Source of the DNA: Chromera velia
Lineage: Eukaryota; Sar; Chromeraceae
Assembly (NCBI GenBank): GCA_018398765.1
Contig: JAHBMJ010000183.1
Location: forward strand, 1-54,514
Direction: 5' to 3'
Length of the DNA: 54,514 nt
Shown: piece after piece, positions 15,761-54,413 of the stretch
Layout of the letters: each line of letters starts with the position of its first letter
How positions within the stretch are numbered: the first letter of the stretch is position 1
Position numbers and translations under genes: made by a program
Notes under the pieces: generated by a model
What the model was told of the DNA's origin: nothing
Databases searched by the model: none
The model's input: the letters and a program-made list of their open reading frames with translations, nothing else

Positions 15761-18700
15761 ACAGACAGAGATCTTCCTGCACACACGCACACACACACAC
15801 ACACAATCACAGACAGAGACAGAGACAGAGACAGAGAGGCAGACAGTCGCACCGTGAGGTCATCTCCTTTTGGTTCCACCAAATGATTGGTCTGGTACAC
15901 TGCGACGCGGGAGCTGTCGGGTATGTACTCCGGACAAAGCTCTGCATGCAGACACAAAGGGAATCAAGAGTTGACTCGATGCCTTCAATCCACACGTTGG
16001 GTATCGAGTGCGCCCTCGATCGGGTTCACAACTTTCAACAAGAAGCTGGCCGAACATAAAGGGAACGGAAGGTGGCCAACAGGAAAGAAGAGAGGGCAGA
16101 AAGAGTGTGACGGTCTGCAACGGGCCTCACTCGCACACAATGAATTCTCCCATGAATTGATCGTCTGCTTCTGAAAACGACGTACTGCAAGATGGAAGAT
16201 CATGACAAAATGAATTGTGCCGAGCGACTTACGCGATTCACCGTTCAGGGCATTCAACTGCTGTATCGATATCTCGACTGACTTCTGCAGACCATGGTAG
16301 ACCCAATCCACCTGCCCCCATTGCAGACGAGTCTGTCCTTCCAGGGTTCCCCTTCGACTTTCGGATAGAAGGTCTTTTGGACCTCCACGGCTCCATTGTT
16401 CTCCACAGTCATCTGACGGCAATCATCGAATGAATCAAGGGATTCATTTTTTTATTTGTAAACAGACGTGACAAAGGCGCACAAATAAAGGGAGACAGAA
16501 TGTAGAGAAAGACATGGAAATGCGCAAAAAGTGCACATCAAACACAGAGCATGCCAGTGAAAATCGACAAAGAGACAGGCAAATGCTTCCACCCCTCTTC
16601 TCCTAAATGAAATCTCTTACCGGTCCGTAGCCAGGTTTGCATTTCAGTGTCGCTGTCGCTCCTGCTTTAAGATACTCCTCCATCTCGCCATACAGATCAT
16701 ACTCGAGTTCATATTCCTGCATGCAGTTCATTTGATTGTGTACGCAAGTGTACCGAACCATGCAAGAGACTTGAACAGGCGGTGTGCACAAATGAATGAA
16801 GAGATCCACATGATGCACATAGAGAGACTTTCCTGCAATCTGTCTGGGTGATCGATCTTCAGTTAAAAAACAAGGTAGGAGAATAGAGCAATCATTTTGT
16901 GCATCCGCACACAAAGAGACTGAGGGAGGCGTGGGGGAACCCAGGTGGCAAAGAGGCTCCAAAGGAAGACATCAACACAACGACTCAACCGACCAACCTT
17001 CGAATCCACAAGGTGATGAATACCCTCGTCTTCCTCAAAAAACTGGCAAGACTCTGCAAACAATTCAGATAGGGGACAAGCACAGTGTCCTCACTTGCGA
17101 GGGCTGGTGTCATTTGATATCTGGTGAAAGGCTTATCTTGGCTGCGTTATCATTCCTGGAGCAAGGCAACGAAACAAACACTAGAAGATTAACTACTGCG
17201 TCCCGTCCTTTTCTCCCCTCACCAGCTTGAGTATTCACATCCATCAGACACACAAAGAGATGGACTGACTGTCGCAAGCGATTGAGGGAAACTCCCACCG
17301 TCCGTGAATGCAGGTCAACTCCTCGGTGGCGTTCCAAATTGAACTTCTAGAGGAGTACCGACTGTCGATGTTGCACCGAATCTGCAAACGGCCACACGAT
17401 CAATCACGAAAAAACGTGAGCGCACTCACGGCATCCACACCCACAGCATTCATTTTTATTCACAACGTTCTTTTTACTGTGCATCAAAATGAATGAATGA
17501 ATGAATGAATGAATGAGAGCTCACTCACGGCGTCCACACCCACAGACGCTTGTATACACAAGAAACATGTCTTTCACCGACGGCACCCACGGACAGAAAA
17601 AAAAAAAACAAGAGAGAAGCAGAAGGAGAGGATGAGTACAAGGCGGAGAACACGAACAGGAGTTTATGCGAGGGACAGAGAGAAAAACGGGAACAGCAAT
17701 AGAAAAAAAGACTTCCTTCCTCTTTCCGACCGACCTCGACTTTGCTTCCATGGGGGGCTGTGAGTCCCCTTCTCCACTCGATGTCGTCTGGCACAATCAT
17801 TTTGAGTTTGTGAAGTTTCGGATTGAAGTTTCGCCATTGGGTTTCGAAGGGAGGGCACTTGGCTGCACAAACCATGTATGATCGGTAGTACCGATCCATT
17901 GAAGTTTGCTTCACAGACACACGCGCACACACGGAGAGTGAGAGAGAAAGTCAGAGATCCAATTCTCAATATTCAGGCGGACACGTTTCCTTTGTGCGGC
18001 GACGGTGGACAACCCTTTCCTCTCATTGCCTTCTTTTGCTCTTCCTCCCTGTATGCATGCATCTGTGTTTAAGTAGGGGAAAGCAAAGTCGAATAAACTC
18101 CAAAGAAAAAACGAATCAAAAGAATTCACCCCCTCGAGATCCACTCCCCTTACCATTCCATTCCATTACGCGCACGCGCGCGCGCGCGTGTGTGTGTGTG
18201 TGTGTGTGTGTGCACTATGGGAGCAAGAAACAACAGAAGAATGAATTAGCACGAGCTCCTCTCCCCCCCGCTCCCGTTTCTTCCCCTCCCCTCCTCACAC
18301 ACCCATGCACTCCCCTCACCATTGCATTGCAAATCGACTCTTTGCATCATGCCGTTGTTGCACGAGATTTGAACGTTCGAAGGAGAGATGGCCCCGGCAG
18401 ACTGCCCATACCCAGCGGCGCACATCACGTTGACGGTGTGGCCGTGCCGGAGTCCGGTGGGGAACTCTAGCGCCAGGCTGACGGCATGCAGGCGAGCAGG
18501 CAGACAACGGCAAGCAGCATGCACAAACGCTTTAAGCAGAGATGGAGGAAAGAATGAGTCCAGGAAAGAAAAGAAGAACGTGGCAGGCACACGTACATGG
18601 AAATGCAAAGCGACCTCCATTTCACAATTAGACATACACAGTTGAAGGCAGATGGATGGAAGGAAGGGCAACATCTCAATTCAAGCTTTCGCTGCAAATA

Positions 18701-18988
18701 GGTCATCCTCTAGCTGTGGGAGTTGCATTGTCTTTTTCTCTTTCGCCTTTAGTGGAGTGTTTTTCGCACCTCGACACACCGATGGGCACTGCGCAATTGA
18801 GCAAGCAAGCGATCAAATAAGCAAAACTTTGCCTGAGAGTGATGAACTGATGAGTGTTTTTGTGGCAGATCAAGAAAGGGCCTGACAAACGAACCGCGCA
18901 AGTGAGGGGAAGTACTCGTAGCCGAGGCCCTTGGAGACTGGAAGAGGGCACCTTCCTGTACAGACACACAGACACACACAAAAGAATG

Positions 18989-19029
<41 letters not shown>

Positions 19030-20072
19030 ACACACAGAGAGAGAGAGAGAGAGACTGACTGTAGCAGACGATTCTTCTGTCCATCCAGACCCCGTGGATG
19101 CACTCCAGAATCTCATGGTCGAACATCACAGGTGTGCCGTCTGCCAGGGCAGCAGTCGAGAGTTGCTCCTCGCACCTCACGTTGACCATCGACCTTTCCT
19201 GTGTGGTCCCCCCAATCCGCGTGTAGATGTACCCCTCTTCCTGTCTGGAGAACTCGGGACACTTGGCTGCATGCGGAAATAATTATATGAATGAAGCGGG
19301 GCACGAAGAACACGAAAGGCTCTGTGCATAGAAATCAGAACACTAAGGCAAACCGAGGTAAGTCAAAAGCGTCGAGAGACAGCGAAAGAAAAATTGTTTG
19401 CGGCCTGGCGTGCAAAATTCATGCTTTGTGCCGAACCTGAACGCATCTTCTCTCTCTAGCTTTCATGTATGCACTGTTGCAAGTTATCCGACATGTAGTA
19501 CATGGAAAGGCGCCCGTTTCGGCCGAAAGGAATACAAAAAGACAGACACAGGGAGAGAGGGACAGCTTTACGAACAGAAAAGCGAATGGAATCAGAGACA
19601 AGCTTGTGGAAAGAAGCCCCGCGACGTACCTCTACAGAAGATGGAGACCTTCTGAAAGGCGCCATTGAGACACACATTTATTTTCATGCAGAATACAGAA
19701 GAATGCAGAAAAAGAGACGTACCTCTACAGAAGATGGAGACCTTCTGAAAGGCGCCATTGAGACACGAGAGCACTTGAACGTTCTCCCTGTCCAAAGGCT
19801 CCGCGTCGTCTCTGCACTCTACGCGCACCATCCCCCCTGGCTTTGTGGCCTCCTCTACCGTCCCGACAGTTCGAACAATGTACCGCCCTCCCATTTTCAC
19901 CACATCTTGTCTGAGTCCATCTAGGTTGCAGGGGGCTGCAGGGAGACAAGCAGGCAGGCAGGAAGGAAATGAAAGGAAAAGAGGAGACATACATTTGCAT
20001 CATCTGGAATTTCCATCACAGATGAGAGAAGAAGCAAAACCTCAAAAAAGAATCAAAAGGAAAGCGAAGGGA

Positions 20073-20107
<35 letters not shown>

Positions 20108-23100
20108 CGCTGACTGACGGTGGCATCGCAACAGCGGCATGCTGAACGTTCCCCATCTGCACTTCATCTCCCCCATGTTCTCCTCGTTGGCCGTTCCTGG
20201 AACCGGGAAGGTGCCGTCCTCGCACTTCACGTTCAAATCGACCCCATGGGACATCGGCAGGCCCCTCCACTGCATCTCTGGCCCTGTGTTTTCGTATCCC
20301 ACAACGCGCATGTGGGACTTTGAGTGGATTGGCACATCCTCTGGCCGGCAGTCCTCTGTAGGCAGGCAGGAGGCAGATCATCCGAGAGGTCGATAAGTGA
20401 GTGGAATGATTTGCAGGGAACGAGGTCAATATGGAACAAGGGGGCGGTTTGTGGGAAATGCAAGAAAGAATCTGTAAGTGGAGAAATGAGAACCATCAAG
20501 ATGCAATGTATGTATAAGAGAGGAGGAGGGCTAGGAGCAGGGTGAGAAAATTCGCGAGCTTGCGTGTAAGTCAAATGGAAAGGGCGAAGGACACACGCAC
20601 CTGCGCAGACAAGCCAGAGCTTTGAGAATTCGCCGTCGTCGCAGAGGACGGGAGAGGGCTCCGATCCACTCGAAGGACGCCAGCCGTCCGCGCACTCGAC
20701 GTACATCTTGCTTCCATGCGGAATGCGGGCACTGTTGAGGGACACGCGAGGGGGGGTCTCCGTGAGGTTATAGCCCCAAGGGGGGAAGTAGAGGCGGGGG
20801 TCATCATCCGGTCCTGTCGCCTTCTTCTGTTGGATGCAGGACTCTGCAGAGGTAGGGGGAGAAGCAATTTTGCGTGCGTTAATGAACTGTTTTGTTTTCA
20901 GCTTGTACACACAAAGGTTCGCATGGAGCTGTGCCACAGCTGCACAGACGTCGCATCGTCTTCTCTTCTTCGGTGTAGGAAGAGTGGGAAAAGAGGAACA
21001 GAAAATGAATGGCTTTGAAAAGCATTAGAGACGAAAGAGGACGAAGATAGAACGAATCCGCTGGCCATACAGTACCGGAGCAGGCAACAGGGCAAGGTCG
21101 AGAAAAAGAGACAAAAAGTGCTTAAAGCCTCGCAAACAGAGAGAGAGACACATGCAGACTAACTCTTGCACTGAAGGTCAAAACGCATCCACGCGCCGTC
21201 TTCACAAAGCGCAACGCCCGTTTTTTCTTTCGTGATAGGATGCTGGAAGTTCGTCTCATTGCAGACGACGCGGAGGGCGTGACCGTGATGTGCCGTCTCG
21301 TTTGGCCCCACAGGATTCTCAATCACGTATCTGCAGACATCAAAATCAGAAATAACGAGACGAAGAATGATTTTCAGTCACTTCGCCACTATGCATTTCC
21401 ACACAAAGACCGGTCTTTAGTAAATGGCTATAGAAAGTAGGGGAAGTCGTGTCCAAGAAGAGAAGCGTATGGAAAAATGTTCACGGAAAAGAGGAGGGAG
21501 AAAAGCCTGGACGACTCAGAAAGAAGAGGACGGAGACCGGAAAGTGGAAGGCAAATTTACGACGAATCCAAAAGGCAAAAAAGAAACAAAAGGAAAGAAC
21601 AAGAAAGACCCCCCGGAAAGCCACAGACAAACAAACCTGTTGTTTCGGATGTCGTCTGGGAGCATCTTGAAATCCGGGCAGTCCTCTGCAGATAGAGAGA
21701 GAGAATGTGTAAACGCATTTTATTTCATACAAAAAAAAAAAGAATTCCGGGAAGTCCTCTGCAGATAGGGAGAGAGAATGTGTGAAAAGGAGAAACAAAT
21801 CTCAATGTACACAAGCAAGAATGGCCTGGGGATACGAGAACACATGAGAAGCGCAGGCGGTTTCGTCGGGATAAAGCTGGACTGATTGAAGCTCCTTGAA
21901 TCCGGTTGAAGAGGCAAATGTGGAAACAAAATGGTTCAGCTGGTTATCCATGAGAAAGTTGGCGAGGAACCAGGATGGGGCAAGTCAGTTCTTGTGAGGA
22001 GGGGGGAAAACCTTTATTGGAAATGATGCACTATGCGTGTATCCACTGTCACGATTCAATCCGACCCCACTGTTGCCAACGAGCATCGACAATTTGAGTA
22101 CTTACATGCATACCTATACAAGCACACGCTCACATTTTTGTGTGTGCAAGCAAATGAACACACATTGCTGTAAACACCATCAGACGCACTCACTGACTCT
22201 TGCAGACAAGTGTCAAAGGTTCCCACTCTCCGTCTGAGCACGTGAGCGTCTGTTGCTGCGCCACCTTCCCCGTGAGGCTTTTGGGTCCCTCCACTCCGTA
22301 GTGGCCCTCCGTGCACATGACCTTGATGCTGTCTCCGTGCTGCGCGCCTGCGTGGTCCTTGCTGAGTTGGTATCTCACGAGGTCGGGGGCAGGCATTTTG
22401 TTGCATCCTCCTGCACAAATACATCCATCGTGGAATGAAGGGGGGGGGTGCTTTCAATGGTCATGGTTGGGGTGACCTGTCCGGCTGGAAGTTCGGATTG
22501 AGTGCAAAATAAAAGGTCCTTATGACTTGCTTCCGTAAAAAGAGGCCTCTTGGGGAAGTGTGCATGTTGGTGCGCTCTATTTTCAGCATTTCCGCGCAAA
22601 AGAAGGGAAAATGTATGTAAATTTCCACTTGCGTTTTCCAGTGCATCTCAGAAACACTTCAGGAAAGTGCTTGCAATGAGGCAAGAAAGGCCACAAGAAC
22701 ACGAAAAGAACAAAAACAAAAAGGGAAAAGAACCACTCTATTTCCGTTTGTCTGCTTGCTCGCTCGTTACAAAACCGAAAATGTTACGACTGTTTCTCTC
22801 TGTCTGTATAGCTTTCATTTCCTCTTCCCCAGAAGAAGAAAACCCGACTGACTCATGCAGAGGAGCGTCAACGGTGAGAACATTCCATTGACGCACGCAA
22901 CCTGCGCAGTGTTGTACCCCGTGTCTTCCGGTTTGGACTCCTTACACCCCTTTCCCCCGTCGCACTTGACAGGGGAGAACCCTGCTTCGGTGTCACACTG
23001 GAACCTCCAAACCGCTCCGTGGGAGGTGTACGGTCTGTTCGGGTTGCTGCCGTCGTGCACAAGCTCGCGACTGTACCCTCTTCTTGCATTGGGCAGGTCA

Positions 23101-26419: not shown

Positions 26420-26453
<34 letters not shown>

Positions 26454-28492
26454 CGCACACACACACACTCATCAAATCAAGCACAGAGGACGGGAGGGAC
26501 TTACGATGGCAGTCCAACTCGAGGGCTTCGTAGGATCCCTGCAGGCACTGGATCTCTTGGGACTCTCCCTCCTTTCCGTATCCTTCTTTGCACGTGACAA
26601 CGGAGACAGACCCGTGAGCGTTCCCTCCGAACTTCACTTCATACCGATCCGACACAGCGGGCGAAATGGGGAAAGCCTCAAAGGGGGGGCATTCAGCTGC
26701 AGAATCACAGACAGAGTGAGAAACGGAATTATTCATGTGACGACGGACTTCAACACATATCACACGCACAAGGTTAGTTTCTCACTTTTTCTCACTTGTC
26801 TAAAACCCAACCGCCTAGCTGTCCGACTCACCGAAGCACTGCAGTAACAGAAAGTCCCACACGCCTTTATTTTCATACAGAATTTATTTTAGTACAGAAA
26901 AAGAATGCATGCACCGACTCACCGAAGCACTGCAGCAACGGAAAGTCCCACACGCCTTTATTTTTATACAGAATTTATTTTAGTACAGAAAAAGAATGCA
27001 TGCACCGACTCACCGAAGCACTGCAGCAACGGAAAGTCCCACACGCCGCCCCTGCAGTAGACTCTCTCCTCCTTCGGCCGAGTGCGTGTTGATGCAGGAG
27101 CGTACCCTTCTTCACAGACAATGGGGATGAAATCTCCGTAGCGAGTCGCCTTCTGGAGATCTCCAAGACCGAAACCCTCCTGCAGTCTGTAGTGGCCGTC
27201 CGTCGGCATCTCAAATGCCGGACAGTCAAGTTGGCAATCCAGCGTCTGAGCTCCCCATTCACCGTCAGCACACCAGACAATCTGAGGGTCTGTGCCTGTT
27301 GACTTCGAATACCCCTCTGCGCATGTGACGTTGCGAGTTGCCCCATGTCTGAGAGACCCGGCGCCCCTTCTGGGGGACACCACATACGCACCATTCAGGT
27401 CTGTGTACTCTGGACAAAGAGGGTAGCAGGACAGGGCAGGTTTAGTCCACTCCCCGTCGATGCACGCAACCGTGCGAGAGGTGTCGGTAATGCCCTCGGC
27501 AGGCGCCGTTCCCCCAGGGCAGACGACCTGCAGCTGGGTGTTGTGCCTCCTCGACTCTGTGAAACCAGCCACGGCTAGCTCGGGGGGAGGAGAGTACATC
27601 GTTGTGCAGTCAGCTGCAGAGATAGATGAGGATGTTGCAGACAGGCCAAACATAAAAAGAAGAAAATGCAGGAGACGAAAATAAAGTGACAGAAACGCAG
27701 AAAGTGAGACAGGACAACCCGCAGTATATCATTTACACAGACATAAGAGTAGAAAGCAGAATGCCTCACTGTTGGACCGACTGGCAGAAGCTTTTTCTCA
27801 TTTTCCACTGCGTGACGCAAGCAGGCCTCTTCTATAATTGAAGTTCATGCAGCACCAGGCCCATTCAAGGCTTCTTATGCACCTGGCCATCCGGGCTTTC
27901 CCATGTTCTTCCAGCAAGTCCTGAAAAAAATGTCCCTACACATACAATCGCACACGATTGCCCACTCCCACAAGAGCTCATCTTTTTCAAACTCACCCAT
28001 GCATTGAATTGTGGGGATTTCCCACTCTCCCTTTCCCTTGCACATGACGACCTCGTCCTCCCTCGCCGGATCGTTTGAGGAGAATCCCTTCTGACAGGAG
28101 ATCCGTCTCCAGTCTCCAAACCCATTCCCATCACTTCCCCCCACCAACAGATGCCTTGAGAACGTCTGGAGGTACTCCTCGAACATCGGGCACTTCGAGT
28201 GACACGTGCACGAGCAGAGGTTCTTCGGGTCGTTCAAGGGATCACAGTCCTCCCCTCCCTCCAACTGCCCGTTGCCGCATGCAGTTGTCCTGCCTGCAGG
28301 CAGCAGTAAGGGAGGGGAAAGGATGGGAGCCATCCCGTCCAATCCAAAGAAAGTCATTCATTCATACGGAAAAGGCAGAAGTGAAGAGACTGCTTCTTCG
28401 TCTTCTTCTTCTGCCCCTGTCCTCGCTGTATGCATTTACTTTTATACAGAATTCTTTCATACGGTAAGAAAACAAAAAAGAAAGACTTCTTC

Positions 28493-28524
<32 letters not shown>

Positions 28525-31500
28525 CTTCTTCTGCCCCTGTCTTCACTGTAACGTCTCAGAAGCAGACTTGATCATTCATTTGAAGACGCAAGCCGACCTA
28601 GATCCATGCATGCATCGATGATGCATCACACAGGCTTGTTCTAATTTGTTCACATTTCTTTTCTTTTTCTCTTTTCCACACAGCTTCGACGAGCAACAGA
28701 GCTTCGATCTGCCAGAGAGAATAGCGGGCTCTCGTTTAACCCCCCTTCTCCCATTTCTCTACCAGCGAAAACGCACAAGTCTATCCTTGTAGAACCTAAG
28801 CATGGATACCCCCCGACTGACGCACGCACGCACCTGCCAGACCGTCCAGGCCGTCTATCGTCTGTGCGACCTGCACAAGGGAATCTGCCTGAGACTTCAT
28901 CACAAACTTAGCGGCGTAGAGGAGACCTGCATGAGGGAGAGATGAGACAAGAGAGACAGGGCCAAGCAAAGTGAATGAAACATGTACGTTGGATTTATTC
29001 GCGTCTCATGTATCGTGTAAGAACATGTTTATTCATCCACCTGCAGAGGAACAAACGACAAATATTCATTCTTGCTTGCCCACTATCGTTGTTTGTGACT
29101 TGGTGACTTCAGTCATAGAAACACAAAGGAAGGCACATAATCTCACCGTCCCCCAACCAAACCCACGAACCCTTATTAAAAAAAAAACACGGACCGTCAA
29201 AGCAATGCTTGGCCTCCACTCCACACCCGAGCACCCACTGGCCCTCCTGAGCAGGCTTGGACCCCTCATCTCCCGAGAGATGGGGATCCGATGCCGTCTG
29301 CTTGAATCCCCCCCCGATCTCAAAGGCGCTCCCTGCCAATTGTTCTTTGTAGATTGAGAGCTGCATGCATCGATGCCAACAAGGATCAATGGGTCAACTG
29401 ATGTGAATGAAGCCACGCAACACAAAGAGAATAATGAGATTCGAGAAGAAATCAAGTCAGAGGCGTAAATCCTCGAAGAAGCAAATTTCAAACCTCTTTT
29501 GTTCGCGTTGATGCACGATGAGACCGATTGAAGATGCAAGGTCATCATGTGGTCTTCAATGAACTCTCCTACTTCCAAATGCACATTCCTCTTCTGGTCC
29601 TTCCTACCCACCCTCATCATTCCTCCAGCAGTGTATCCCGAGAAGACAAAACTCTGCACATGGCCAAAGCAGGTTTCCACAAAGTACCCTCCCCCCCCTG
29701 TGTCTGCGCCTGCTTGTGTCCCCCCCTCCTCTCCCTCCTCCGAACTGGCCGAGTCCCCTTGCCAAAGAAAACCGACACGGAGACCGGTCAGCTCCTTCTT
29801 CAGGGATGGAAGCGCAACAATCTGCATTCATTCATTCATTGGCAAGTGAAGGCGTCGGTGGGGTCAGTAAGTGTACGTGTTTATTGAGTATGGGAGTGCT
29901 TTTTGTTCTGCTCCTCTGTTGTGCAAATGCAGAAAGAAATCAGTCATGGAAAGCGTTCGGAAAAGAAGAAAAACTCCGATGCCATCAAAGAAGGGGCAGA
30001 CAACGAGCAAAAAGACAAAAAAAAGTCATGAATCGAGAAAGACGCTGTCATGACGACAAAGAGAAACCAATGCACCCAGAAACCTCAAGAGAGAAAAAGG
30101 CGAACAATCAGGAAATGTTTCCAAGGGGAACCTTCACAAACAAGCAAAGAAGATTGAAAGACTGAAGCACGAAGCAAATATCCGGCTCAGGGGGGTAAAT
30201 TTGTCCCCCGACGGTTCGCAAAGAGCCCTTTTTCTTTCTTTTACGAAAACCTTTCGACTTTCCAATTTCGTTGTCCTTTTCACTCATCCTTTTCAGACCT
30301 CACCTGAAAACCGTGTCCGTTGTCGAAGAGCACCTGTTTTCTTTTTCCCGCCGCAGAGGCAGCAAACTTGAGGGTGAGGTAAATAGTGAAACCGTTCGCG
30401 AGCCCGTCTCCCCTGCGGGAATAGAACAGACCCGTGAAAGAGTGGAATAGGAGGAATGCCGTTGCGAGTCCTATCCCATGCGCAACCACAAACCATATAG
30501 CCACCTATATGCCCGCTTTGCCGTTCTCTCCCACCGTGCATACACGCATACGTTTTCCGGTGTTGTTCTTTCCAGATTGGGACTCTTCATCCATTTGCAT
30601 GCAGAGACAATCAGCGATTGCGTGAAAGAAAAAGAAATGATTTTGGCTCTTTCGACAGAAAAGCATTTGGGTCAAAATGGGAAGAATGTCTTTAAAAGAA
30701 GGCACGAGACACACAGAGCTATCACATCGTGGAGGAGCGAAGAAAGGCGAGAAGGAACAAAAACAAAAATATATGGCGCCTTTTGTCTCTTTTTTTCTCT
30801 TCTCCTGTCTTCCGTTTTCCGAGTCTGACCTTATCAATGGAGGCATCATCCCATGAATCCTCAGAGCCCCCCCGTAATGGAAGAGGACTCCTTTGGCAAA
30901 CGAGACGCGACCCCCCAAAGGTTGGACGAATGAGAGCTGGTCGGGGAGAGTGCCTTCCTCATTCGGCCAGGTCTCAATATGATTAAATCCTGTACGCTTG
31001 ACGGATGTGAAACCGAAAGTGATCTCTTCAAAAGCTCCAACAGGGACAGAAGTTATAGAGTCGTCTGACTTCGTGTCATCTTCCCCCTTGGATGACTTTT
31101 GTTGTAGAAAATCCGTAAAATACCCCCCTGGCTCTCTTCTTCGTCTGCGTTTTTCTCTTCTTTTCTCTTTTGTTGTATCTTTTGTATCTTCTGACGACAC
31201 ATCTGTCTCCTCACTAAAATTTAAACTTGGAGGCCCCGGCGTGCCTCTGTGAAGATGAGAGGGATCCTCTTCCTCCTCTTCCTCTTCTGAATCACTCAAA
31301 TCTGAATCACCTTCCTCCTCTTCCCCCTCCTCCTCCTTCTCCTCCATCTCAACAAAAGAAGACCCCCCTAAACTTCCCCCCCCCTCTCTCCTCTCATCCG
31401 TCTCCCTCCCCCCCAGGTCCGATTCCCGACCCCGGGAGGAAGAGAGACCCCACGACTCCATCAAGTCAGGCCCCAAAGAGACAGACGCATCGTTGCGAAG

Positions 31501-32294: not shown

Positions 32295-32326
<32 letters not shown>

Positions 32327-33641: not shown

Positions 33642-36600
33642 ATGCAGATTCGCTGTGTGTTGCTCTGGGGCTGCACAGTCTCTCTTCTACCTCAGCTGGT
33701 AGACTGTGCGCTCGGTGAGTACTTCATTTTCTCTTTGTTCATTCACTCACGACCTTCAGACTCTGTCCATATATTGGTGTACATAATTGTTTTTGCAAAA
33801 ACGTGTGCGTATGTGGATTTGTGCGTGCAGATGAATGCTCCCTGCTGACACACAACTGCGCAGAAACGGCGGCATGTAGCGACACTGTGTCGTCCTTCAC
33901 ATGCTCTTGTAACAACGGGTACAGTGGAGATGGGATCACTTGCTCAGGTCTGTCTTTTGGGTCTTACAACTGAAGCGCGCTCCAAGATTGGATCAGAAAC
34001 AGTGTACGACAGACAAACCTTGTCTATTCAGGTGCGAGGGCCTGATTCGCGAAACCAAGATATTTGCACGTATTTTTCTCTCAATTTGCCCTCGATTGTG
34101 TGCAGACATTGATGAATGTACTACCGGAGTTCATAACTGCGCTGCCGACGTCATGTTCCCTTTTCGGTACTGCGAGAACTCAGTCGGATCCTTTATTTGC
34201 GACCTCCCGTCGGCGGGGGATCAAGACGCCGCCAGGGCAGATCCCGCGGCATCTGCTGCTGCGATTCTGCTCGCAACAAGCGATGAAGACATTCTACAGG
34301 GTCTGGAAACAGTCGCAGCCACCTCAGATTCTTTTGTATCTTTGCCTGACGAGGTCATAGCGGTTGTCGATAAGGCAGTCGGGGCGACAGAGAATGTGCT
34401 GACAAGTCTGGAAACGAGCATCCCGCCAACGTTTGAGCTTGTCAACTCAGTAAATACAAAAATCACCGCCATGGGCAAATTGACCAAGCAGGCAGGGGAG
34501 ACACAGGCAGCCTCTCTCTCCCCAACCTCCGGCGACACCTCATCGAAAGTCGCGAGCACATCCAAAACACTTACTCGGGTCGGTAGACTGTGGTGCTCTC
34601 ATAGGACACTGCGTTTACTCATTCATGGGTGCAATTGACTATTTTTCTCAACGACGCATCTCGTCCTTTCGTGGGGTGGCTGCCGGACTTGAATCTCTGC
34701 GGTTCCAATGAAAAGAGGCTCCACGATTTGTCTGTAGTGGGTTTTCAAAATAAAAATTGAATCCTTCTGTTTTGTGTCTCTCAGGTTGGGGGCACAGTCG
34801 CCCGCATGGCCACTCTTCTGAAGTCCACTGTGGGGGACGACGACGACGCATTTGACCTCCTCTCAGGGAGCACGGAATCCCTTGCGGGCCTCACACAGAC
34901 ACTCACGAGAATGGGCATTGCATCTGGGACTGCGAAGGCTTTCGAGGGGGTACGTCAATGGGGGATTCTGAGATTAGGCAGAGTGTGCACTTTTGAATAT
35001 CGAAACAAACTCCCCGGATGTGGGAAAAGACGGCGTCTGTTTGTGTTTTCTTTCTTTGTGGGGTTCCTTAGAGAGAAGACTCCGTCTTTCCGTCTGGCGA
35101 TGTTTGGTAATTCACAACAACAAAGACACTAAGGCTTAATTTCTCTCGATTTCCATTTTTCGATTCTATGCCGAGTTGAAAAGATACTGAGATCGAGAGT
35201 GAATGCCCGTCCATTCCTCTCTCTTTCGGCCTCGCTTTGGAGTGATTCACAGCTTTTATCTGTCATTCCGATTTCCTTCGATATTTCTCTTCCCACTCTT
35301 ACCCCTTCCCTGTTTGTGCATTGTTCATGTCTCATCTGACGGCGTGGATGCCTTTTTTTCCCTGTAAATGTATCCCTGTTTGTGCATTGTTCAGGTCTCA
35401 TCTGACGGCGTGGATGCCACAGAGCTTGCCAACAGAGAGACAGAGATGAAGGAAGTCTCAAAGGCAGTCATCAGCGGAGCAACGCAACTTTGTGAGTCGA
35501 CCGACTATGCATCGGACCATCAGACCATCAGATTTTTTATTCGTTCTGCAGCAGCGTGTTTTTTACTCCCTTCTTCTGCCCGCCAATCTGAAAAGAAAAC
35601 AGACACAAGAAGGAAAAGAAAGAGATAGACAAAGAATTCCAGTCAAGTGGTGGACAGATACAAACGCCGAATGTGCATCGAAGAAACTGTTACAGAGCCT
35701 TGTGCATGCAGCCCGGCCTTCCAACCGACGGCAAGACGGAAACATTCACAGCCATGCTAACTCTGAACGCGAATCCCCCGACCCCATAGGGAAAGTTTGA
35801 ATAGACACGAGTCTTCTCGAAGTGCTCTTTTTATTTTTATTCCAGTCTCACAGACACAATGCCCCACTTTTTCATGTCATTAACAATCAAATGTGCTTCT
35901 CTTTTCTGCAGCTGCTGCTATGGGTCGGACCCTTCCCGCAGGATCCCAACAGGTGATCTCTCCAGACGGTGCGGGCCTCTCCATCGCCACACAGACCCTC
36001 AACCCCATCGTAGACATTGTGGCAAAGGGGTACTTAGAGGTCCAACTCGGGCGAATCAAGTACAAGGTGGTGTTCTCAGAAGCCCAGAAGACCCGACTGA
36101 TGGAGATCGGCGAGGCAGGGTGCTCAGATGCGAAGTTGGCGTCCCTGTCTGTGGGGAGTTTCGATTGGGACTCGGGGCCGCATGATTACTCTGAAGCGAG
36201 TGCGAACCTGAAGGGGGGGTCAGTCGATCGGTGTGGAGACATCTCTCTCTCCCCCCCCCCCCCCCNNNNNNNNNNCCCCCCCCCTCTCTCTCTGTGTGTG
36301 TGTGTGTGTACTTTTGTCTGCTGTGTGCAATAAAGACATCCATTCGGCTGAATACACCTGTAGTCGTTTGCTTTCCCACTCTATGTGCGTGCATCTAACT
36401 GCATGTCTTTCCTCTCTTTTCTGTCTTCATGCATGCAGGTCCGCTTCTCTCCGCTGGTTCTACTGCGGGAATGACGTGGGGAAGAGCATCTTCGCAGATG
36501 ACTCTGTGATTTTGGAAGTGACTTTGCCCACCACAACGAAGAGCACTCTAAACCTGACGGGAAGACGGAGACGGCTGCAGGACTCCAACAGCACAGAGGA

Positions 36601-38237: not shown

Positions 38238-38276
<39 letters not shown>

Positions 38277-44401: not shown

Positions 44402-44485
44402 GGAAAACCCAGGGCGGGGAAATGGCTGTATAAGGAAAACCCAGGGGGGGGAAATGGCTCTATAAGGAAAACCCAGGGGGGGGGG
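44384..44485 (+). repeat. 33-bp tandem repeat carrying the stop codon of the GPS gene
   Basis: Three copies of GGGGAAATGGCTSTATAAGG + AAAACCCAGG. The first copy encodes the last residues EMAV and the stop TAA (44399-44401); the other two repeat the same context downstream. Confidence 0.9.
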
Positions 44486-46554
44486 AAAGCCAACAGTCTT
44501 CATTTGTTTCTGTCTTCTCCGTTTGTTCTTCTTGTTCTTTCTGCCCGATGTCTCGCCTCGGTTGACGGTCAAAGTTTTTCGCAACAAAGAGGCCAGACAA
44601 AGGAAAGAAGGGACTGAGGAGCCACACACACATATACACACACAGACACACTTGTTGCGGACTAAAAAGTGGGCATGTATTGCGTAGACGGAGCAGAAAA
44701 AAAGAAAAGAGATCAGAGGGGAAGGAAAGGGAAGGGATTGGAAGGGGAGGGGGAATGTCTTGCTTCTTTCCCGTTTCACTCCGTCGATTCACTCGCTGCA
44801 GGTCCACGTCAAACAGAAAGAAATCAAAACACATTAATACAGCAGATCGACAAAGAAATAGACGAAAAAGCGAAGATTCAAAAGGACGTGGATAGGTGGC
44901 TGGAAAGATGGGTGGTTATCTCAACTGCTTCCTTCTCTCTCTGTAAGATGGTGTTCCGGTATTCATCATCTCTTCTTCACTTGACCTCATCAAAAACTTT
45001 CTCCTCCAACGCAAGAACGAGCTCACGACGGAACAAATGCATATGAATGACTTCAATTCGATCAGAAAAAAATGACCGATCTAAATTCGAGGAGTTTCTC
45101 CTTCCCTCAATCCATAGGATTGTGACCCTTGCTTCTTCATTTTGCGTCCGACATCGAGGAATGAAGTCGCATTGCCCGTGTTCCTCCCATCTCTTTCTCT
45201 CCCCCCCTCTTCCCCTCTCCAGCACTCTTCTCCTCCGCCTTCCTCTTTCCCTCTCCGGCTTGACATATTCCCTTCACATCCTCCCCCTTTTTCCTTCCTC
45301 TTCGTTTTTCCTTCCTGTCCCGACGGTCCCGCCTCCCCCCCCTGTTTCCTCTTTGGCTTCCTGTCTGTCCGTGTCTGTCGACTCGAACTGGGAGGAGAGG
45401 AAGGTGAATTGAGGAAGCGCCCGTCGATGCCGACGCAGATGCAGGGTTGGGGGATGGGGGGACTGAAAAGAGAGAAAACGGCATTGTCTGAAGTTTCATG
45501 CACCTCCGTGCGTGCAGACACTCCTTGTGCCGAAATGAGAGAGAGAGAGAGAGAGAAACAGACGCGTTGTCAAACAGACGGAGAAGGGGGTCGCGTGCGG
45601 ACAGAAAGAGAGAATGCAGATAAGCAGAGGGAGAGAGTCGGTGACATCTGATCACTTTGTCTACTTCCACTTCGATCACAATCGGGCACGCATCAATGTC
45701 TTTTTCCTTCACTTCGTTTATCTTTTTCAATCCGCCTTTTTTTTTTTTTGCTGTCAGTGGATCTGTCTGTCTCCATGGATGGATGGATCTTCGCCCGATT
45801 TGATTTTAAATTTCAAAATTCAGCTTCGTCCGTCTTTCCTACAAACACTCTGGCTTAAGCATCCATTCATCTGAATTAATGCTGTCTTAGGCACTCGATC
45901 ATTCCATCACATGCCCTCCCATGCAAACAGACAGAGAGACCGACAGACAGACAGGCAGACAGGCAGACAGTGTCTCTGTCGTGTGGTGTGGTCTGAGGGG
46001 TTGAATCCACTCGACCGATCACACATTTGGGAAAGAAAATTGACAACAAGACCTAGACCAGGCAGATCGACATGGAAGTGGAGAGAAAGAAAACGCCTCT
46101 CGGAGCAAAAAGGAATCTACTGCAGAAATGTCAGGCTACTGACGAATAGAAGGAGAAAAAAAGAGTGACAGAGGAAAAGTCGTTTCAACAAGGCTGAATT
46201 TGAAGAAGCGCTGAGACGTTCTAATCAAGGACAAAGGGATTTCTTTGGAAGGAAGGAATAAGAAGACTCTTTAACTCAAAAAGTTACGAAGAAAAAAGGG
46301 AGAAGACGAATAAATGAATCTGAGTCACGCCTATTGTAAAGCGCCTTAGATACATTCAGAACTCAGAGACAGTGTCTGAGCGGCTGAGCCACACGTTATT
46401 CCAAGTCTTTCTTGTTGTGGAGTCTACTACTCAGTAATATCTGAGGTCGTTCAAAAATCACTTTTCATACAATATATAATCAAATAATCCGATTCAAATT
46501 TACAATAATTATTACTCATCTATGAGCTTCTTTTTACCTCCTTAACATACTACC
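44486..46554. other. gene-poor stretch, possible short exons on either strand
   Basis: No firm gene. The plus strand at 44830-44945 has a protein-like helix (LIQQIDKEIDEKAKIQKD) after an acceptor GCTGCAG. The minus strand at 45225-44977 encodes CDFIPRCRTQNEEARVTI and ends ELVLALEEKVFDEVK, and minus 45720-45650 reads KINEVKEKDIDACPIVIEVE. These could be exons of small unknown genes, but I could not join them. The remainder holds CT-rich and (GA)n tracts (45535-45560) and AGAC repeats near 45935. Confidence 0.4.
44977..45225 (-). CDS. possible 3' exon of an unknown protein
   Basis: Open to a TGA at 44979-44977. The C-terminal 60 residues (from about 45165) look protein-like, with ILWIEGRRN, DRIEVIHMHLF and ELVLALEEKVFDE. 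The upstream part is low-complexity Arg/Gly/Glu. There is no family match and no secure start. If real, the gene is convergent with the GPS gene. Confidence 0.25.
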   Translation of the reverse strand: MLERGRGGERKRWEEHGQCDFIPRCRTQNEEARVTILWIEGRRNSSNLDRSFFSDRIEVIHMHLFRRELVLALEEKVFDEVK

Positions 46555-46664
46555 GAACACTTGATCGTGGAATTAAGTTGCTGGGGCGGCCCGACTTAAT
46601 TACCAGTGATATTCCACGCCGGATGACTCCGGGACGAGTTGATAGCTCTTCAGTTCAAGTGTCC
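46555..46664. other. structured element with closing 8-bp inverted repeat
   Basis: ACACTTGA (46557-46564) pairs with TCAAGTGT (46655-46662). Inside are AATTAAGT/ACTTAATT (46571-46578 with 46594-46601), alternatively GTGGAAT/ATTCCAC (46567-46573 with 46611-46617). A perfect CCGGA-TGAC-TCCGG hairpin (46619-46632) and GAG/CTC (46636-46648) follow. The result is a multi-branched fold of 106 nt. It is not a canonical tRNA or hammerhead by motif. It could be a small RNA or a MITE with short terminal repeats. Confidence 0.4.
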
Positions 46665-47680
46665 TATAGTATGAAGGAGATTTATCATCACCATACGCCA
46701 TTATTATTATTGATTGGTATATAGGCCATCATGCAATGCATGACTTGGCAGCATGAGTCTAGGACACTGCATGTTGTATTGCCCCTTTGCAATGAACTGG
46801 GAAGAGGGGTGGAGGGTTCTGGAGGCAAATAGCTTCCGTCAAAAGGAAATGCCGCATACAAACATAATCAATCCTATAAAACTAAGTTAAATTCCCCGGG
46901 AATTTAGTGGAATTTAATGCAATTTACCCTTAAAATTTAGTGGAATTTGGTGGATTTTAGTAGAATTCACCATAATTTTGACTTACGATTTTTGATAACC
47001 GGGTCGACATTTTTTTTATTTATAAAAAAAAAATGTCACAGGCCTTTAAAACTAGCCTTTAAAAGTTAATGTTTGCTTTTAGGCGTTTTAAGCCCGCTTT
47101 GTATACAAATTTCTATACAAATTTTCAACTTCATACTCCATATACTTCTTGAGATCCACTAAGCAGACTTTTTCAAAATCGTAAGTTGACTTTTCAAAAA
47201 GGTAAGCTAGAAGGTAAGCCAAAATGTCTGATAACCAGACTTTTTTGTTCTAGTTTTCATCAGACATTCTTTAAGATGTGACCAAGCATATAGCTTATAA
47301 AGATTAGTACTAGGAAAAGGTTCAAGGTTCAATGTTCAAGTTTCACTTCAAAGTAGTGAACCTGAATCAGGTTTAAATTTCAAAAACAAGTTCAAAAATA
47401 GGTTTACTTTTAATTAGCGCAAACTTGCAGTTTAAATTTTGATACTGCATTTTAACTTTTTATATGTTTGTTTAACGTTTTACTGCTAGTTTTAGTGCTT
47501 TAAACACTGCTTTTTAGTGCTTTTATTTTGTTTTTTAAACAAAATTTCTTTTAAAAAAGATATAAAACTATTAAATCTAAAGATTGTGAAACTTAAAAAG
47601 AAAATGTAGGTTTGAGCTAGGCGTATCATAGCAAACCCCTCTGACACTCCAATCTGTCTTAAAATGGATTTTTCAATGCT
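46665..47680. other. AT-rich spacer with GTTCAA-type repeats
   Basis: AT-rich DNA with many short recurring words (GGAATTTAGTGGAATTTA near 46910; TTTTCAAAAWGGTAAGC near 47180; GGTTCAAGGTTCAATGTTCA near 47320). No gene seen; it looks like old repeat material. Confidence 0.5.
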
Positions 47681-47850
47681 GGCCGTGCCTGCAGCGCGGT
47701 TCTTTCAAGACTCTAGTCAAGACTGTCTGCGCCTTTCACAAAAAAATTTAAGTATACTTTATTTTGGCCATGCCTTCGGCGCGCTACCTTCAAGTTAAGC
47801 CGAGCCTGCGGCGCAGGCGTTTCAAGTATGGCCGCGCCTACGGCACGGCG
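47681..47850. repeat. cluster of four GC-rich palindromes
   Basis: 47681-47699, 47766-47784, 47799-47819 and 47830-47850 each fit GCCRNGCCTNCGGCNC + GGC, a hairpin with the loop around CCTNCGG, set in AT-rich DNA. The last two are each followed by GGCGTTTCAAGT. Members differ by compensating changes in both arms. Confidence 0.75.
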
Positions 47851-48409
47851 TTTCAAGTTTACTAGAGTGTCAGGGAGGTTTCACAGAAAAAAAAAAAAAG
47901 TAACTGGAAAATGGTCTACATTATTTTTTTATTTTTTTTTTTCATATCCTACACCTTAAACTAGCGTGCTAAAAAAAAAATAATGATGATCCCTAGTGAT
48001 GATCTATAAAATATAGTATATGTGAAGCGTTCGATCAAAGGAGGCCTGGTCCCTGACCTAGTCCCTAACCAATGTGTGCAACGGTGTGCAATGTTATATA
48101 ATAATGTAAATACGTACGAAAAAGGGCAGGAAGTCCCTCTAGAAGTCCCTTTTCTTCTTCCTTCTCAGAGAGATGGCCGACTCCGCTGTGTCACTCCTAT
48201 GTAGGAGGGAAGAAAACTATGAAAAAGAGTTGTCTCGATCGGTTTTGATCCCATCAATCTAGATATTATTAATGGAGGGACGAGGCTGTATGTAGGATGC
48301 CATTGGAAGGAAGAAGAGGAGCATGCATTGGGAACAAGAAGACGAGGGAGAAGGAGACGAAGAAGAAAGCGCTAAATAGTTACGCCTGGCTGGCACAGGC
48401 CTCGTCGAT

Positions 48410-48841
48410 TTGGAGAAGACTGACTCGTTGAACGACGTGCTTCAGTTATCAACGTTTCGGGATGAAACATTGTATGACGATGAAGACTCTGATGGTGATA
48501 ATGACAGTAAGCAGGAAAACAAACGAAAGAAAATGTTTGAAAGTAAAAAAGAAGCTATGCCTAGAGAAGGAAGAAACGAGTCAGACGAGAACGTTGGAGA
48601 GGAAGGTAATAACAAAGAAAAGAGAAGAGGGCGTCAGCAAGTTCAGTTGCCAATGGGTAGGAAAGAAGACCTTGTTTCTTTTTTTATAAAGAAGCTTTGG
48701 AAGAAAAAAGAAAAGTGAAAAAAAGTTGGGAGCACAAGCTCAAATCTTGCAAGGGAAGGAGACTCGTCTCCATGATCACGTTCAGGCAGGATCTTCTAGC
48801 TCTAGTTCCAGCTTTGCAGACCCGGCAGATGATGGTTTGCT
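48410..48841 (+). pseudogene. charged, low-complexity ORF relic with a frameshift
   Basis: Open frame from about 48410 encodes an acidic/basic segment (YDDEDSDGDNDSKQENKRKK) to a TGA at 48718. A second frame then continues with KLGAQAQILQGKETRLHD and SSSSSSFADPADDGLLG to a TAA at about 48846. The shift falls in A-rich DNA around 48700-48722, suggesting one protein broken by an indel. No known domain; AT-rich surroundings suggest an element-derived gene. Confidence 0.25.
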
Positions 48842-48849
48842 TGGTTAAA

Positions 48850-51800: not shown

Positions 51801-52619
51801 AAATTCCCACTTAGAGCCAGACAGGGGAGGAGAGGGAGAAAGGGAGGGAAGGAGGGAGCACACCAGCAGCAAGACAGCCAAGCCATCACTTTAATTCGCA
51901 TGCCGCCTTTCCTTTCAGTCGCTTCCGTCGACCTTGCAAAGACTACCGGTCAAAACGAAGCTTCTTTTTCACGCCTGTCTCTCCACCTTTGAAAATCGGA
52001 TTAACGGTAACAGCTGCTCCATGCAAATATGAATGCAGTGAAGCCCTACCTTTTCTTCAAGCGCCCCTTTCACTTTCAGTCCAGAACGCAAGAGAGAATA
52101 AAGATTCAGCTGGCTGCTGTAGATCTAGAATTAAAGACGAACTTAGGGCTTGCCAACAGAGCATGTTGTGTGAGCAGACAAACAAAGGGGAGGGACAAAA
52201 TGACGCTAGGAGACAAAAAATAAAAATGAGACAAGGAACGATTATTCTCAAGCAGAAGGAAAGCTCATGCAAAAAAAAGGCAAAGAAGGGACGGTCGGGC
52301 AAACAAGATGCATGCATCCTCCACTTCTTCCGGAAAGACACACAAGCACCGTCCTCTCTTGAACAAGCTCCGTTTAACCTCTTCTTTCTCCATTCATTCA
52401 TCGAAAGAGAAGGAGAAGAAGACAATTTGTTTTTTTGTTTGTACATTAATCGATTGGTCGAGGACGTCACTCTGCTGTAATCATCCATCCATCCAACCAT
52501 CCATCCCTCCATCCATCAAGTCGATCTACGTGCATGTGTCGATTTATTCCAACCACACAGAACCGCATGTCAGGAAAAGAGCCCCCACAGACTGGCCCCC
52601 GCATTCTCATATTCAAATT
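48850..52619. other. gene-poor spacer
   Basis: 49120-49270 is very GC-rich with GGCC/CCGGC words. 49573-49640 has about seven AGGTTCA words. 50030-50130 and 50290-50320 have TGCATGCATG. 50430-50560 is (GAAGGA)n. 51250-51310 has CAGG repeats, and 52480-52520 has CATC repeats. Long frames here are low-complexity and I find no supported gene. Confidence 0.5.
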
Positions 52620-54295
52620 TTATCGTGGAGGTGGGGGCGTTCTGACAGGGGGGCTTTCGCTGGGCCTCACGGCCCGACTTCCTGTTGAAACCGTACAAGC
52701 AGCAACAGCAACAGGAGGAGGGGGAGAAGAAGAAGAGTGCAACAGAGCTTCGCCACCGACACCCCCGGCAGCATCCCCACCAGAACCCGAACCCCTGAAT
52801 CCCTCAACCCCCCGCGTCTCCATTGCAGGGGGCGAAGCTGTGGCTGCAGAAGAAGCTGCAAAGGAAGAAGACGAGGGGTAGGAAGGGACACAGGTCGACG
52901 CGACAGCTGCACCCCGCAAAATGTTCCTTTCATTCTTCACTTTCTCTTTAACGTTCTCTTCACAAAGCAGCAAATCCTCTTTTCTTCCTGTATCCTTTTC
53001 ATGGGGTGCGAATTGCCCCTCCGAGAGATTTTGCGGTTCTCCTGAAGCATTCGATGCAGGAGGAGGGGAGGAAGAAGACGAAGAACAAAAGGAAGACGAG
53101 GGCACTTCTTTTTCTCCTCTGCACACATCCCCCTCTTCCGTCTCCCTCTCTGTCTTATCACAACCAGAGACAGAGACAGAAAAAGGGACCCCCAACTCTC
53201 CTACACGAGACTGAGCCTCACATTCTGCAGGAACCTGTCTCTCTCCTTCCTCCTCACCGTCCTTCTCCTTCCTCATCCCCCTCTCTCTTCCCTCTGCTTC
53301 CCCGATTCCCTCCACCTCTGGAGACGGCTCCTTTCCCCCCAACGGAGGGGACTCTGAAGGAGAAGAAGACACACACACAGCCGCCCCCCCTTTTCCCTTT
53401 CCGTCTTCGCCTTCCTCTCTTCCACTGGCAGGAAGAGAGTCAGGACCGGAAGAAATCGTGCCGCCAGAGAGCACCGTGAAGACGTCGGACAAAAAGGACA
53501 GGACCTCCTTAGGATCAGACAGGATGTGGGAAGCCGCAGTGGGTCTCTCCTCTCGGGACACCAACACCGACAGCACGTTACTCGAGTGCACTCCCGAAGA
53601 ACTCCTCAAAGCTCTGAATGCGTCTTCGTCTGTCACATCGTCCCCTGCATGCATACGTGCGTGCGTCAATGGATTAATTCAGTGATTCTGTGTACAAGCA
53701 TTGAAGAACGAAATGAGAAGTCGGTCTCGACAAGGGTGGAGGGATCTTTCTTTTCTTTGCTTTCTTTCCCTTGCTTGCTTCCCTCCTGTTGGAGGGATGC
53801 GTCGGATATGATCATTTATTCACCCGTCTTTGTGAGGGGTGTTTTGTCTTTCTTCGGAATCTGCTGGCCTTTTCAGAGTCGTCACGGTAAGGTATCTTCT
53901 GCCGACTCTTGGCTGTCACAGAATAATCTTGTGATTCCGAGAAAGAAATGGAGAAAGGAAGGAAGGACATTTCCTTTCCTGGTTTCTTTGCTCCTTCATT
54001 TCAGGCACAAAACTCGAAACGGTAGAAAGAAATGCATCTTTGTCTGGTTTATCCTTCCCCTCGGATCACCCGTGCACCCACCCACGGACCTGCATATACC
54101 AGAAAGACAGAGTCGTCATAAGCAGAGACCCCGGAGGCCTCCAAGAGCCAGAGGACCGCCCTGCCCTTGTCCCAGTTGACGTTGATGCGCAGTTCGAACA
54201 CACACTTCCCGAAGGACTTCTTCAGACAGGGGTAGCGAGCGATCACCTCGTCAACGCACGACTCCACGAACGGAACTTCTGAAGGATCTACATTT
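52620..54295 (-). CDS. trehalose-6-phosphate phosphatase domain, 3' part of gene (partial)
   Basis: Exons 54295-54090 and 53644-52620 (phase-1 junction); more exons lie beyond the window. The first encodes CVFELRINVNWDKGRAVLWL, the K-G segment typical of trehalose-phosphatases. The junction restores VFLVYAGDDVTDEDAFRAL, the GDDxTDED motif (HAD motif IV, Mg2+ ligands) of the trehalose-6-phosphate phosphatase family. It is followed by SVLVSREERPTAASHILSDP and the end of the domain, SFLSDVFTVLS. The enzyme removes phosphate from trehalose-6-phosphate. In many protists this domain follows a synthase domain in one protein; that part would be outside the window. About 280 residues of Ser/Glu/Gly low-complexity sequence follow to a TAA at 52622-52620, an unusual tail that could include an unrecognised intron. 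Confidence 0.8.
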
Positions 54296-54413
54296 CTGCA
54301 TCATCCACACATCAAGGTGCATGCGTTCATTTTTTCTGTATGAAAATGAATTCGTATGAAAATGAATGGATCTACATTTCCGCTTCATCCACACAATCAT
54401 CCATCAAGGAACG
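54283..54413. repeat. boundary-type duplication spanning a 3' splice site of the TPP gene
   Basis: GGATCTACATTTC.GC.TCATCCACAC and flanks occur at about 54283-54316 (in use; acceptor GATGATGCAG on the minus strand) and about 54369-54413, where the acceptor reads GAAGCGG and is dead. The linker, here on the plus strand, is TTCATTTTTTCTGTATG, AAAATGAATTC, GTATGAAAATGAAT. Confidence 0.9.

What the first reader, a model, noticed from the sequence alone, without database searches (positions are those of the whole stretch)
17418..54413. Recurrent duplications, mostly of splice sites, around a related short linker (possible new micro-element)
At seven loci (26823-27047, 19622-19766, 21674-21787, 35307-35418, 54283-54413, 28405-28550, 17418-17546) a 26-51 bp stretch is directly duplicated, with a linker of about 20 to 95 nt between copies. 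Five of the seven straddle a used exon-intron boundary. Linkers from different genes align: T-run, CTGTAYN, AAAATRAATTC, (T)GTATGAAAATRAA. Those at 26866-26913 (gene sense) and about 54325-54368 (plus strand) match over about 42 nt, and 19673-19715 and 21714-21746 share the second half; the other three match only part of the core. Flanking duplications of this size plus a shared insert look like insertion of a tiny element with long target duplications, or templated repair. I know of no named element like this; compare with introner elements, which create introns instead of doubling one splice site.
Basis: seen in the sequence. Interest (0 to 1): 0.9.

Follow-up and report, generated by a model that had tools for sequence, protein, structure and literature searches.

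The report
Tiny two-armed inserts doubling splice sites
A large eukaryotic (probably algal) genome carries many roughly 60-letter insertions, each built from inward-pointing copies of one 28-letter unit and flanked by a duplicated stretch of about 40 letters that often includes an exon-intron border, and they fit no known kind of mobile element cleanly.

Summary
All seven duplications are there, and the linker is a genome-wide repeat: a 15-base core has 1086 exact matches, 0 for the reversed control. Of 75 distinct core loci, 67 have flanking direct repeats (score at least 16), against 15 of 221 control positions; in a second set 20 of 20 do. Duplications are 16-67 bp, mean 39, in 78 sites. 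Five of seven window sites straddle a splice site (one by motif only); two look intronic. A paralogous gene in the same genome is empty at three of these sites and has its own insert where the window is empty, so these are insertions at existing introns.

New anatomy: the linker is made of copies of U (TGCATGCATTTAYTTTCATACAGAATTC) pointing inward from each junction (50 of 51 two-armed linkers). Both arms carry the same U variant (24 of 27); middles differ in the cases compared; junction positions vary, with microhomology or extra bases.

Best reading: each insert is made on site, by templated extension of both 3' ends of a staggered break, then fill-in and joining. A foldback/MITE-like transposon with long variable duplications is the main rival. 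Polymerase and template are not identified.

The parts
26823..26865 (-). duplicated segment, copy at intron side (third in gene sense); exon end + GTGAGTCGG
   Evidence: paralogue has one copy..CTTTG|GTGAGTCAG, no U core
26866..26913 (-). linker 2: U units
26914..26956 (-). duplicated segment, middle copy
26957..27004 (-). linker 1, near-identical to linker 2 (tandem amplification of segment plus linker)
27005..27047 (-). duplicated segment, exon-side copy continuous with the sushi-type exon; 5' splice site
   Evidence: (Sushi domain in the ORF)
19623..19673 (-). duplicated segment, intron-side copy
19674..19715 (-). linker with U arm
19716..19766 (-). duplicated segment, exon-side copy, ends GAG|GTACGTC; paralogue empty
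21673..21710 (-). duplicated segment, exon-side copy, TGCAG|AGGACTGCCC; paralogue has one copy, TGCAG|GAGACTGCCC
21711..21745 (-). linker, one-armed U
21746..21783 (-). duplicated segment, intron-side copy (GACTGCCC changed to GACTTCCC)
35307..35352 (+). duplicated segment, intron-side copy; AG of the proposed 3' splice site lost (CATG)
   Evidence: boundary by motif only
35353..35372 (+). linker, 20 nt, partial U
35373..35418 (+). duplicated segment, exon-side copy, TTCAG|GTCTCATCTGAC
54284..54311 (-). duplicated segment, exon-side copy, TGCAG|AAATGTAGATCC
   Evidence: Trehalose_PPase at 2-71 of the ORF, 25.4 bits, cut-off 27
54312..54367 (+). linker, two-armed U (arms read by eye)
54368..54395 (-). 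duplicated segment, intron-side copy; splice AG lost (GCGG)
17418..17446 (.). duplicated segment copy 1 (looks intronic)
17447..17516 (.). linker, two-armed, TTCATTTT-type U (read by eye)
17517..17545 (.). duplicated segment copy 2 (looks intronic)
28405..28430 (.). duplicated segment copy 1 (looks intronic)
28431..28524 (.). linker, one-armed U (TGCATTTACTTTTATACAGAATTC) plus CTT run
28525..28550 (.). duplicated segment copy 2 (looks intronic)

Best explanation
A dispersed family of micro-insertions, each made at its own site. SHOWN: a stretch S of 16-67 bp is duplicated; between the copies lies a linker whose left end reads U (TGCATGCATTTAYTTTCATACAGAATTC, one or more copies, sometimes cut short) and whose right end reads the reverse complement, so that U points inward from its junction; both arms usually carry the same U variant; the middles differ wherever compared; junctions show microhomology or a few extra bases; three window sites have empty counterparts in a paralogue and the paralogue has a reciprocal insertion. 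INFERRED: a staggered break with overhangs of about 40 nt; both 3' ends are extended by a polymerase that begins at the end of a short template (RNA or DNA, about 28-34 nt; tandem U means repeated or jumping synthesis); the overhangs are filled in, which duplicates S, and the ends are joined with filler. Insertions in coding exons survive mostly when S carries a splice site, so the undamaged copy is still spliced correctly and one splice site is doubled. Later unequal exchange makes tandem arrays.
For: Inward polarity: of 51 linkers with U matches in both directions, 50 have all left-type before all right-type; among two-segment linkers 26 read >< and 0 read <>. Middles: 37 interiors of at least 10 nt match one another little better than shuffled ones (mean best score 10.0 against 8.8; the top pair, 17, is a TATG run). 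The nearest genome-wide candidates for two whole linkers (one for L129, three for L127) align in the arms but differ in the middle. Same variant in both arms: 24 of 27, 9.9 expected. Junctions: of 92 scored, 33 have U directly at S, 34 have 1-4 extra bases, 25 more; in 29 informative junctions S-U microhomology averages 1.41 nt against 0.36 expected. Ten loci with identical copies of S still differ in where the linker starts. S length mean 39, s.d. 11, n=78. Empty and reciprocal sites. Passages of PMC8355091: paired nicks giving 43-49 nt 3' overhangs yield tandem duplications by CST-Pol alpha fill-in.
Against: No template RNA, polymerase or break-making enzyme was found or searched for. Arm concordance is also what a transposon with matched terminal repeats would give. 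Interiors are short (median 19 nt of those at least 10 nt) and low in complexity, only 73 linkers were compared, and the two genome-wide searches scored only 40 of 73 and 40 of 106 candidates, with partial matches up to 86% over 83 of 87 bases and 90% over 66, so small sibling groups could be missed. Microhomology rests on 29 junctions. One linker (L082) breaks the polarity rule, and 22 of 73 show U in one direction only. Eight of 75 clusters, and one of four late-fetched loci (L138), show no clear flanking duplication.
Confidence: 0.5

Rival explanations
1. An ultra-short foldback or MITE-like DNA transposon (terminal inverted repeats of tandem 28-nt subunits) moved by an unknown transposase that makes long, variable target duplications.
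For: Inverted terminal repeats, flanking duplications, three U subtypes matched between arms, 1086 exact core matches, tandem subunits as in foldback elements (recalled).
Against: Duplication length varies from 16 to 67 bp; ends are not fixed, with extra bases next to identical duplications; middles differ where compared; 87 of 95 loci examined have the duplication close to the core, so no longer version was seen, though 8 stay unresolved.
Confidence: 0.3
2. Twin-primed insertion of a very short RNA by a LINE- or Penelope-type retrotransposon machinery: each nick primes reverse transcription from the RNA 3' end and the two cDNAs join.
For: Same polarity and junction features; non-templated bases and microhomology at junctions are described for R1/R2 (passages of PMC2718515). 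It is a specific form of the best reading.
Against: Normal insertions are one-ended and long; none seen in the loci fetched. R1 target duplications in the passages seen are 2-17 bp, with rearranged duplications of 16-27 nt.
Confidence: 0.12
3. Introner family: the insert is itself a new intron.
For: Splice sites lie in S in many cases; inverted repeats and direct repeats occur in introners (passages of PMC9860276 and PMC7789003).
Against: At 26823, 19622 and 21674 the paralogue keeps the same boundary without the insert; at the SDHA locus L116 the conserved exon ends at the duplicated 5' splice site. Other loci were not tested.
Confidence: 0.05
4. Ordinary patch-mediated break repair with random filler, or chance similarity of A/T-rich DNA.
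For: Duplication plus filler is a known repair product (listing only).
Against: The filler is the same unit at hundreds of places, with 0 control matches.
Confidence: 0.03

Closest known systems
MITEs and foldback (FB) DNA transposons
   Same: terminal inverted repeats (tandem subunits in FB, recalled), flanking direct duplications, many dispersed copies
   Different: duplication length not fixed (16-67 bp), ends not fixed, middles differ where compared, no coding partner seen (not searched for)
Introner elements (Gozashti 2022, Amoebophrya 2021)
   Same: short inserts in genes with inverted repeats and direct repeats near splice sites
   Different: duplications in the passages seen are 3-9 bp or 3-5 nt and the insert becomes an intron; here existing splice sites are doubled (shown at three sites)
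Interstitial telomeric repeats added by telomerase at breaks (PMC2246262)
   Same: repeat unit added at a break with microhomology; occasional target duplication
   Different: the unit is not TTTAGGG, which forms arrays at contig ends; two inward arms; duplication is the rule, whereas there it was 6 of 130 (rodents) and 4 of 25 (primates)
CST-Pol alpha tandem duplications at 3'-overhang breaks (PMC8355091)
   Same: duplication size matches the 43-49 nt overhangs used there
   Different: no shared insert between the copies is mentioned in the passages seen
R1/R2 non-LTR retrotransposons
   Same: non-templated bases, microhomology and variable duplications at junctions
   Different: long one-ended elements; target duplications of 2-17 bp in the passages seen

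Membership tests
MITE / TIR DNA transposon | terminal inverted repeats | tested here: met
   51 of 73 linkers two-sided, 50 of them in order
MITE / TIR DNA transposon | target duplication of fixed length | tested here: not met
   16-67 bp, s.d. 11, n=78
MITE / TIR DNA transposon | element ends fixed against the duplication | tested here: not met
   92 junctions; ten loci with identical S copies
MITE / TIR DNA transposon | interior shared between copies | tested here: not met
   37 interiors compared; nearest candidates of two linkers differ in the middle; candidate lists were capped
MITE / TIR DNA transposon | coding partner with a transposase | not tested
   no transposase search was made
Introner | insert creates a new intron | tested here: not met
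   same boundary without insert in the paralogue at three sites; other loci not tested
Introner | many similar introns in the genome | not testable with these tools
   no gene models or RNA-seq
LINE/SINE by target-primed reverse transcription | variable target duplications | tested here: met
LINE/SINE by target-primed reverse transcription | one-ended insert with longer, 5'-truncated copies | tested here: not met
   two inward arms in 51 of 73; no long copy seen in the loci fetched, 8 of 95 unresolved
Telomerase-healed interstitial repeat | inserted unit is the telomere repeat | tested here: not met
   TTTAGGG arrays lie at or near ends of contigs
Telomerase-healed interstitial repeat | microhomology between break and unit | tested here: met
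   1.41 against 0.36 nt, 29 junctions

The most novel reading that the evidence does not exclude
A dedicated enzyme carrying a short non-telomeric template adds its 28-nt unit to both 3' ends of staggered breaks in genes, so that these breaks are sealed by a written-in tag; the tag family is not inherited by copying from site to site but is written anew each time, and about 40 bp, often an exon edge with its splice site, is duplicated in the process.
Probability: 0.33. Interest if true: 0.93.

Novelty: new variant of a known kind. Interest (0 to 1): 0.8.

Why it matters
It is a source of local duplications, some with identical copies and so recent, that gives genes a spare splice site, raw material for alternative splicing and intron sliding. 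If the end-extension reading is right, a genome has a polymerase that marks its breaks with a fixed non-telomeric sequence, and the hundreds of marks are a readable record of where breaks occurred and were repaired. Empty sites inside the same genome make the mechanism testable at once.

Tried and rejected
Telomere repeat as the unit: rejected, TTTAGGG arrays sit at contig ends. Known RNA family: no Rfam match in the window at gathering scores. Viral or phage source: no exact match to the core in viral contigs, no match of one element in phage records. Larger elements with long target duplications in the window and the drawn stretches: none clear. A codon-usage profile around the sites was too weak to place exons, and open-frame lengths across S were like those of control windows. 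The 5' splice-site score was not clearly enriched in S (the weights were recalled, approximate values), and GTNNGT is not enriched in set 1 (10 of 56 against 130 of 871) but is in set 2 (5 of 17 against 25 of 224). I first read 17418 as straddling a 5' splice site; the paralogue comparison did not support it. An empty site for L068 was sought and no clean one seen in the capped list. Organism: the only protein hit is 56% identical to a EukProt entry GHVR01166519; Chromera velia is my inference from genome size, base composition and gene style, not shown (published assembly 193.66 Mb in 5953 scaffolds; here 177.8 Mb in 4040 contigs).

Rows dropped: of 75 clusters 56 entered the later statistics (score at least 16, S 15-70 bp, linker 20-130 nt). 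Of 20 set-2 loci, L113, L118 and L132 were left out of length, linker and motif counts because nested or arrayed copies confuse the boundaries. The 78 sites are 56 + 17 + 5 window loci; 28405 is not among them, 26823 is there as L029.
Full report
Observation. The seven duplications are present at the stated places. The window is contig C182 of a 177.8 Mb eukaryotic assembly in 4040 contigs. Short linker patterns are strongly over-represented genome-wide: 349, 627 and 1086 exact matches for three patterns, with 0 matches to the same patterns read backwards; 312 for the full 28-mer with up to two mismatches, again with 0.

Flanking duplications. Loci came from the first 30 places and from the rest of the 100 places listed (contigs C1-C441), plus the one element of the drawn stretches. 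Of 75 distinct clusters, 67 have a flanking direct repeat scoring at least 16, against 15 of 221 control positions; at score 10 the counts are 74 of 75 and 28 of 221. An independent set of 20 loci, all but one chosen by the TTTACTTTC variant of the unit, gave 20 of 20, with alignment scores from 18 to 73. Twenty stretches of randomly drawn contigs (91,757 bases) held one element, with a 35-bp duplication and a 32-nt linker. So the window, with seven in 54 kb, is unusually rich. Of four places fetched late for another purpose, three show flanking repeats and L138 does not in its 250 bases.

Anatomy. With U = TGCATGCATTTATTTTCATACAGAATTC as yardstick, 73 linkers break down into 169 matches (score at least 8), against 16 in shuffled linkers and 14 in 73 A/T-rich genomic windows; at score 10 the figures are 147, 1 and 1. 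The loci were chosen by a core motif, so at least one match each is by selection; the second arm and its direction are not. Fifty-one linkers have both directions and in 50 every U points inward from its own junction; L082 is the exception. Tandem U copies occur head to tail, as in L112. Three U subtypes (TTTATTTTC, TTTACTTTC, TTCATTTTC) are matched between the two arms in 24 of 27 scorable cases, 9.9 expected. Middles: 37 interiors of at least 10 nt give a mean best score to another interior of 10.0, against 8.8 with shuffled partners; the highest, 17, is a TATG run. Whole-linker searches with L129 and L127 gave, outside the locus itself, at best 79% over 94 of 106 and 86% over 83 of 87 (or 90% over 66) bases, with 40 of 73 and 40 of 106 candidates scored. 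The nearest candidates were fetched (one for L129, three for L127): their arms align and their middles differ, being other arrangements of U pieces and T-runs.

Junctions. Of 92 scored junctions, U begins directly at S in 33, after 1-4 extra bases in 34 and further in for 25; in 29 junctions where U begins inside its sequence, S continues in register with U for 1.41 nt on average against 0.36 expected. Ten loci with identical S copies differ in linker start and several have extra bases on one or both sides. S length has mean 39.1, s.d. 11.1, n=78, range 16-67.

Insertion, shown by empty sites. The sushi-type gene of the window has a paralogue on contig C3972 with colinear exon matches mostly 74-86% identical. 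At 19622 the paralogue has one copy of S ending GCAGAG|GTAGGGAGG and no U. At 21674 it has one copy, TGCAG|GAGACTGCCC. At 26823 it has one copy, CTTTG|GTGAGTCAG, and no U core. Conversely the paralogue has three copies of an exon start with two U linkers (L133 about 560-849) where the window has a single copy near 18432-18480. At these sites the boundary is older than the insert, so the inserts double existing splice sites and did not create these introns.

Splice-site link. Five of seven window sites straddle a boundary (35307 by motif only); two look intronic. In the genome-wide sets TGCAG, a common intron end here, lies in S at 23 of 56 sites against 84 of 871 flank windows (set 1) and 9 of 17 against 23 of 224 (set 2) (one search gives 93 of 980 with more flank windows). 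A 3' splice score of at least 6 occurs in 20% of 56 S and 7% of 1938 control windows (recalled weights). 5' splice motifs are enriched in set 2 only. By eye, 14 of the 20 set-2 loci read as boundary-straddling (seven 5': L116, L117, L118, L119, L120, L123, L127; seven 3': L121, L122, L124, L126, L128, L130, L131), six are unclear; this reading was not blind. Homology supports it for L116 (succinate dehydrogenase flavoprotein; the match ends at the duplicated 5' splice site), L131 (DRY_EERY, below cut-off), L106 (CitMHS), L068 (EGF_CA) and L109 (MTHFR_C). Of 40 set-1 frames scanned with Pfam four matched a family above its cut-off (L106, L010, L068, L109); L010 reads by eye as lying in an intron between kinase exons. 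Of 10 set-2 frames one did (L116); of nine window frames and L091 one did (Sushi).

Mechanism. A staggered break of about 40 nt, U added to both 3' ends, fill-in and joining gives S-U-filler-U'-S with the features above. Paired nicks giving 43-49 nt 3' overhangs are known to end as tandem duplications by CST-Pol alpha fill-in (passages of PMC8355091). Microhomology at break sites is reported for telomerase-added repeats (passages of PMC2246262), and non-templated bases and microhomology for R1/R2 (passages of PMC2718515). The polymerase, the template and the source of breaks are inferred, not shown. The concentration at exon edges may be survival: an insertion in an exon is harmless if S carries the splice site. 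This was not modelled.

Literature. Ten searches listed no paper that, by title and start of abstract, describes such an element; only the top rows of each were shown and the library lacks most subscription journals. Seen: passages of PMC4501334, PMC9860276, PMC7789003, PMC2246262, PMC2718515, PMC7776569 and PMC8355091, and the abstract of PMC11782384.

Noticed in passing
G000 contig C3972, 66801-79600 (L133-L136): A colinear paralogue of the window's multi-exon sushi-type gene (window about 17-29 kb).
   Followed up: partly
L017 1329-2429: An array (period 120) of segment plus U linker is one open frame of 367 codons, so it might be translated.
   Followed up: no
unit U: By eye, U reads open in all three forward frames and two of three reverse frames; the arms also resemble a 3' splice site (TTTTCATACAG) and a GTATG 5' splice site, so an element could exonise its own interior.
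   Followed up: no
contigs C182 and C280: Elements are clustered: seven in this window and core hits at seven places of C280 (51 kb), against one in 92 kb of drawn stretches.
   Followed up: no
window 8517-9459: A 484-bp unit in about two tandem copies, 91% matching.
   Followed up: no
window 39161-39335: A 46-bp minisatellite of almost four copies.
   Followed up: no
window 6594-7478 (+): Open frame of 294 aa that looks like ankyrin repeats (read by eye).
   Followed up: no
window 46001-48000: A stretch of low G+C (36.5%) with several short tandem repeats, unlike the rest of the window.
   Followed up: no
window 35307-35352 and 54368-54395: The intron-side copy of S has lost its splice AG (CATG, GCGG), as if the spare splice site decays; at 21746-21783 it is kept.
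   Followed up: partly
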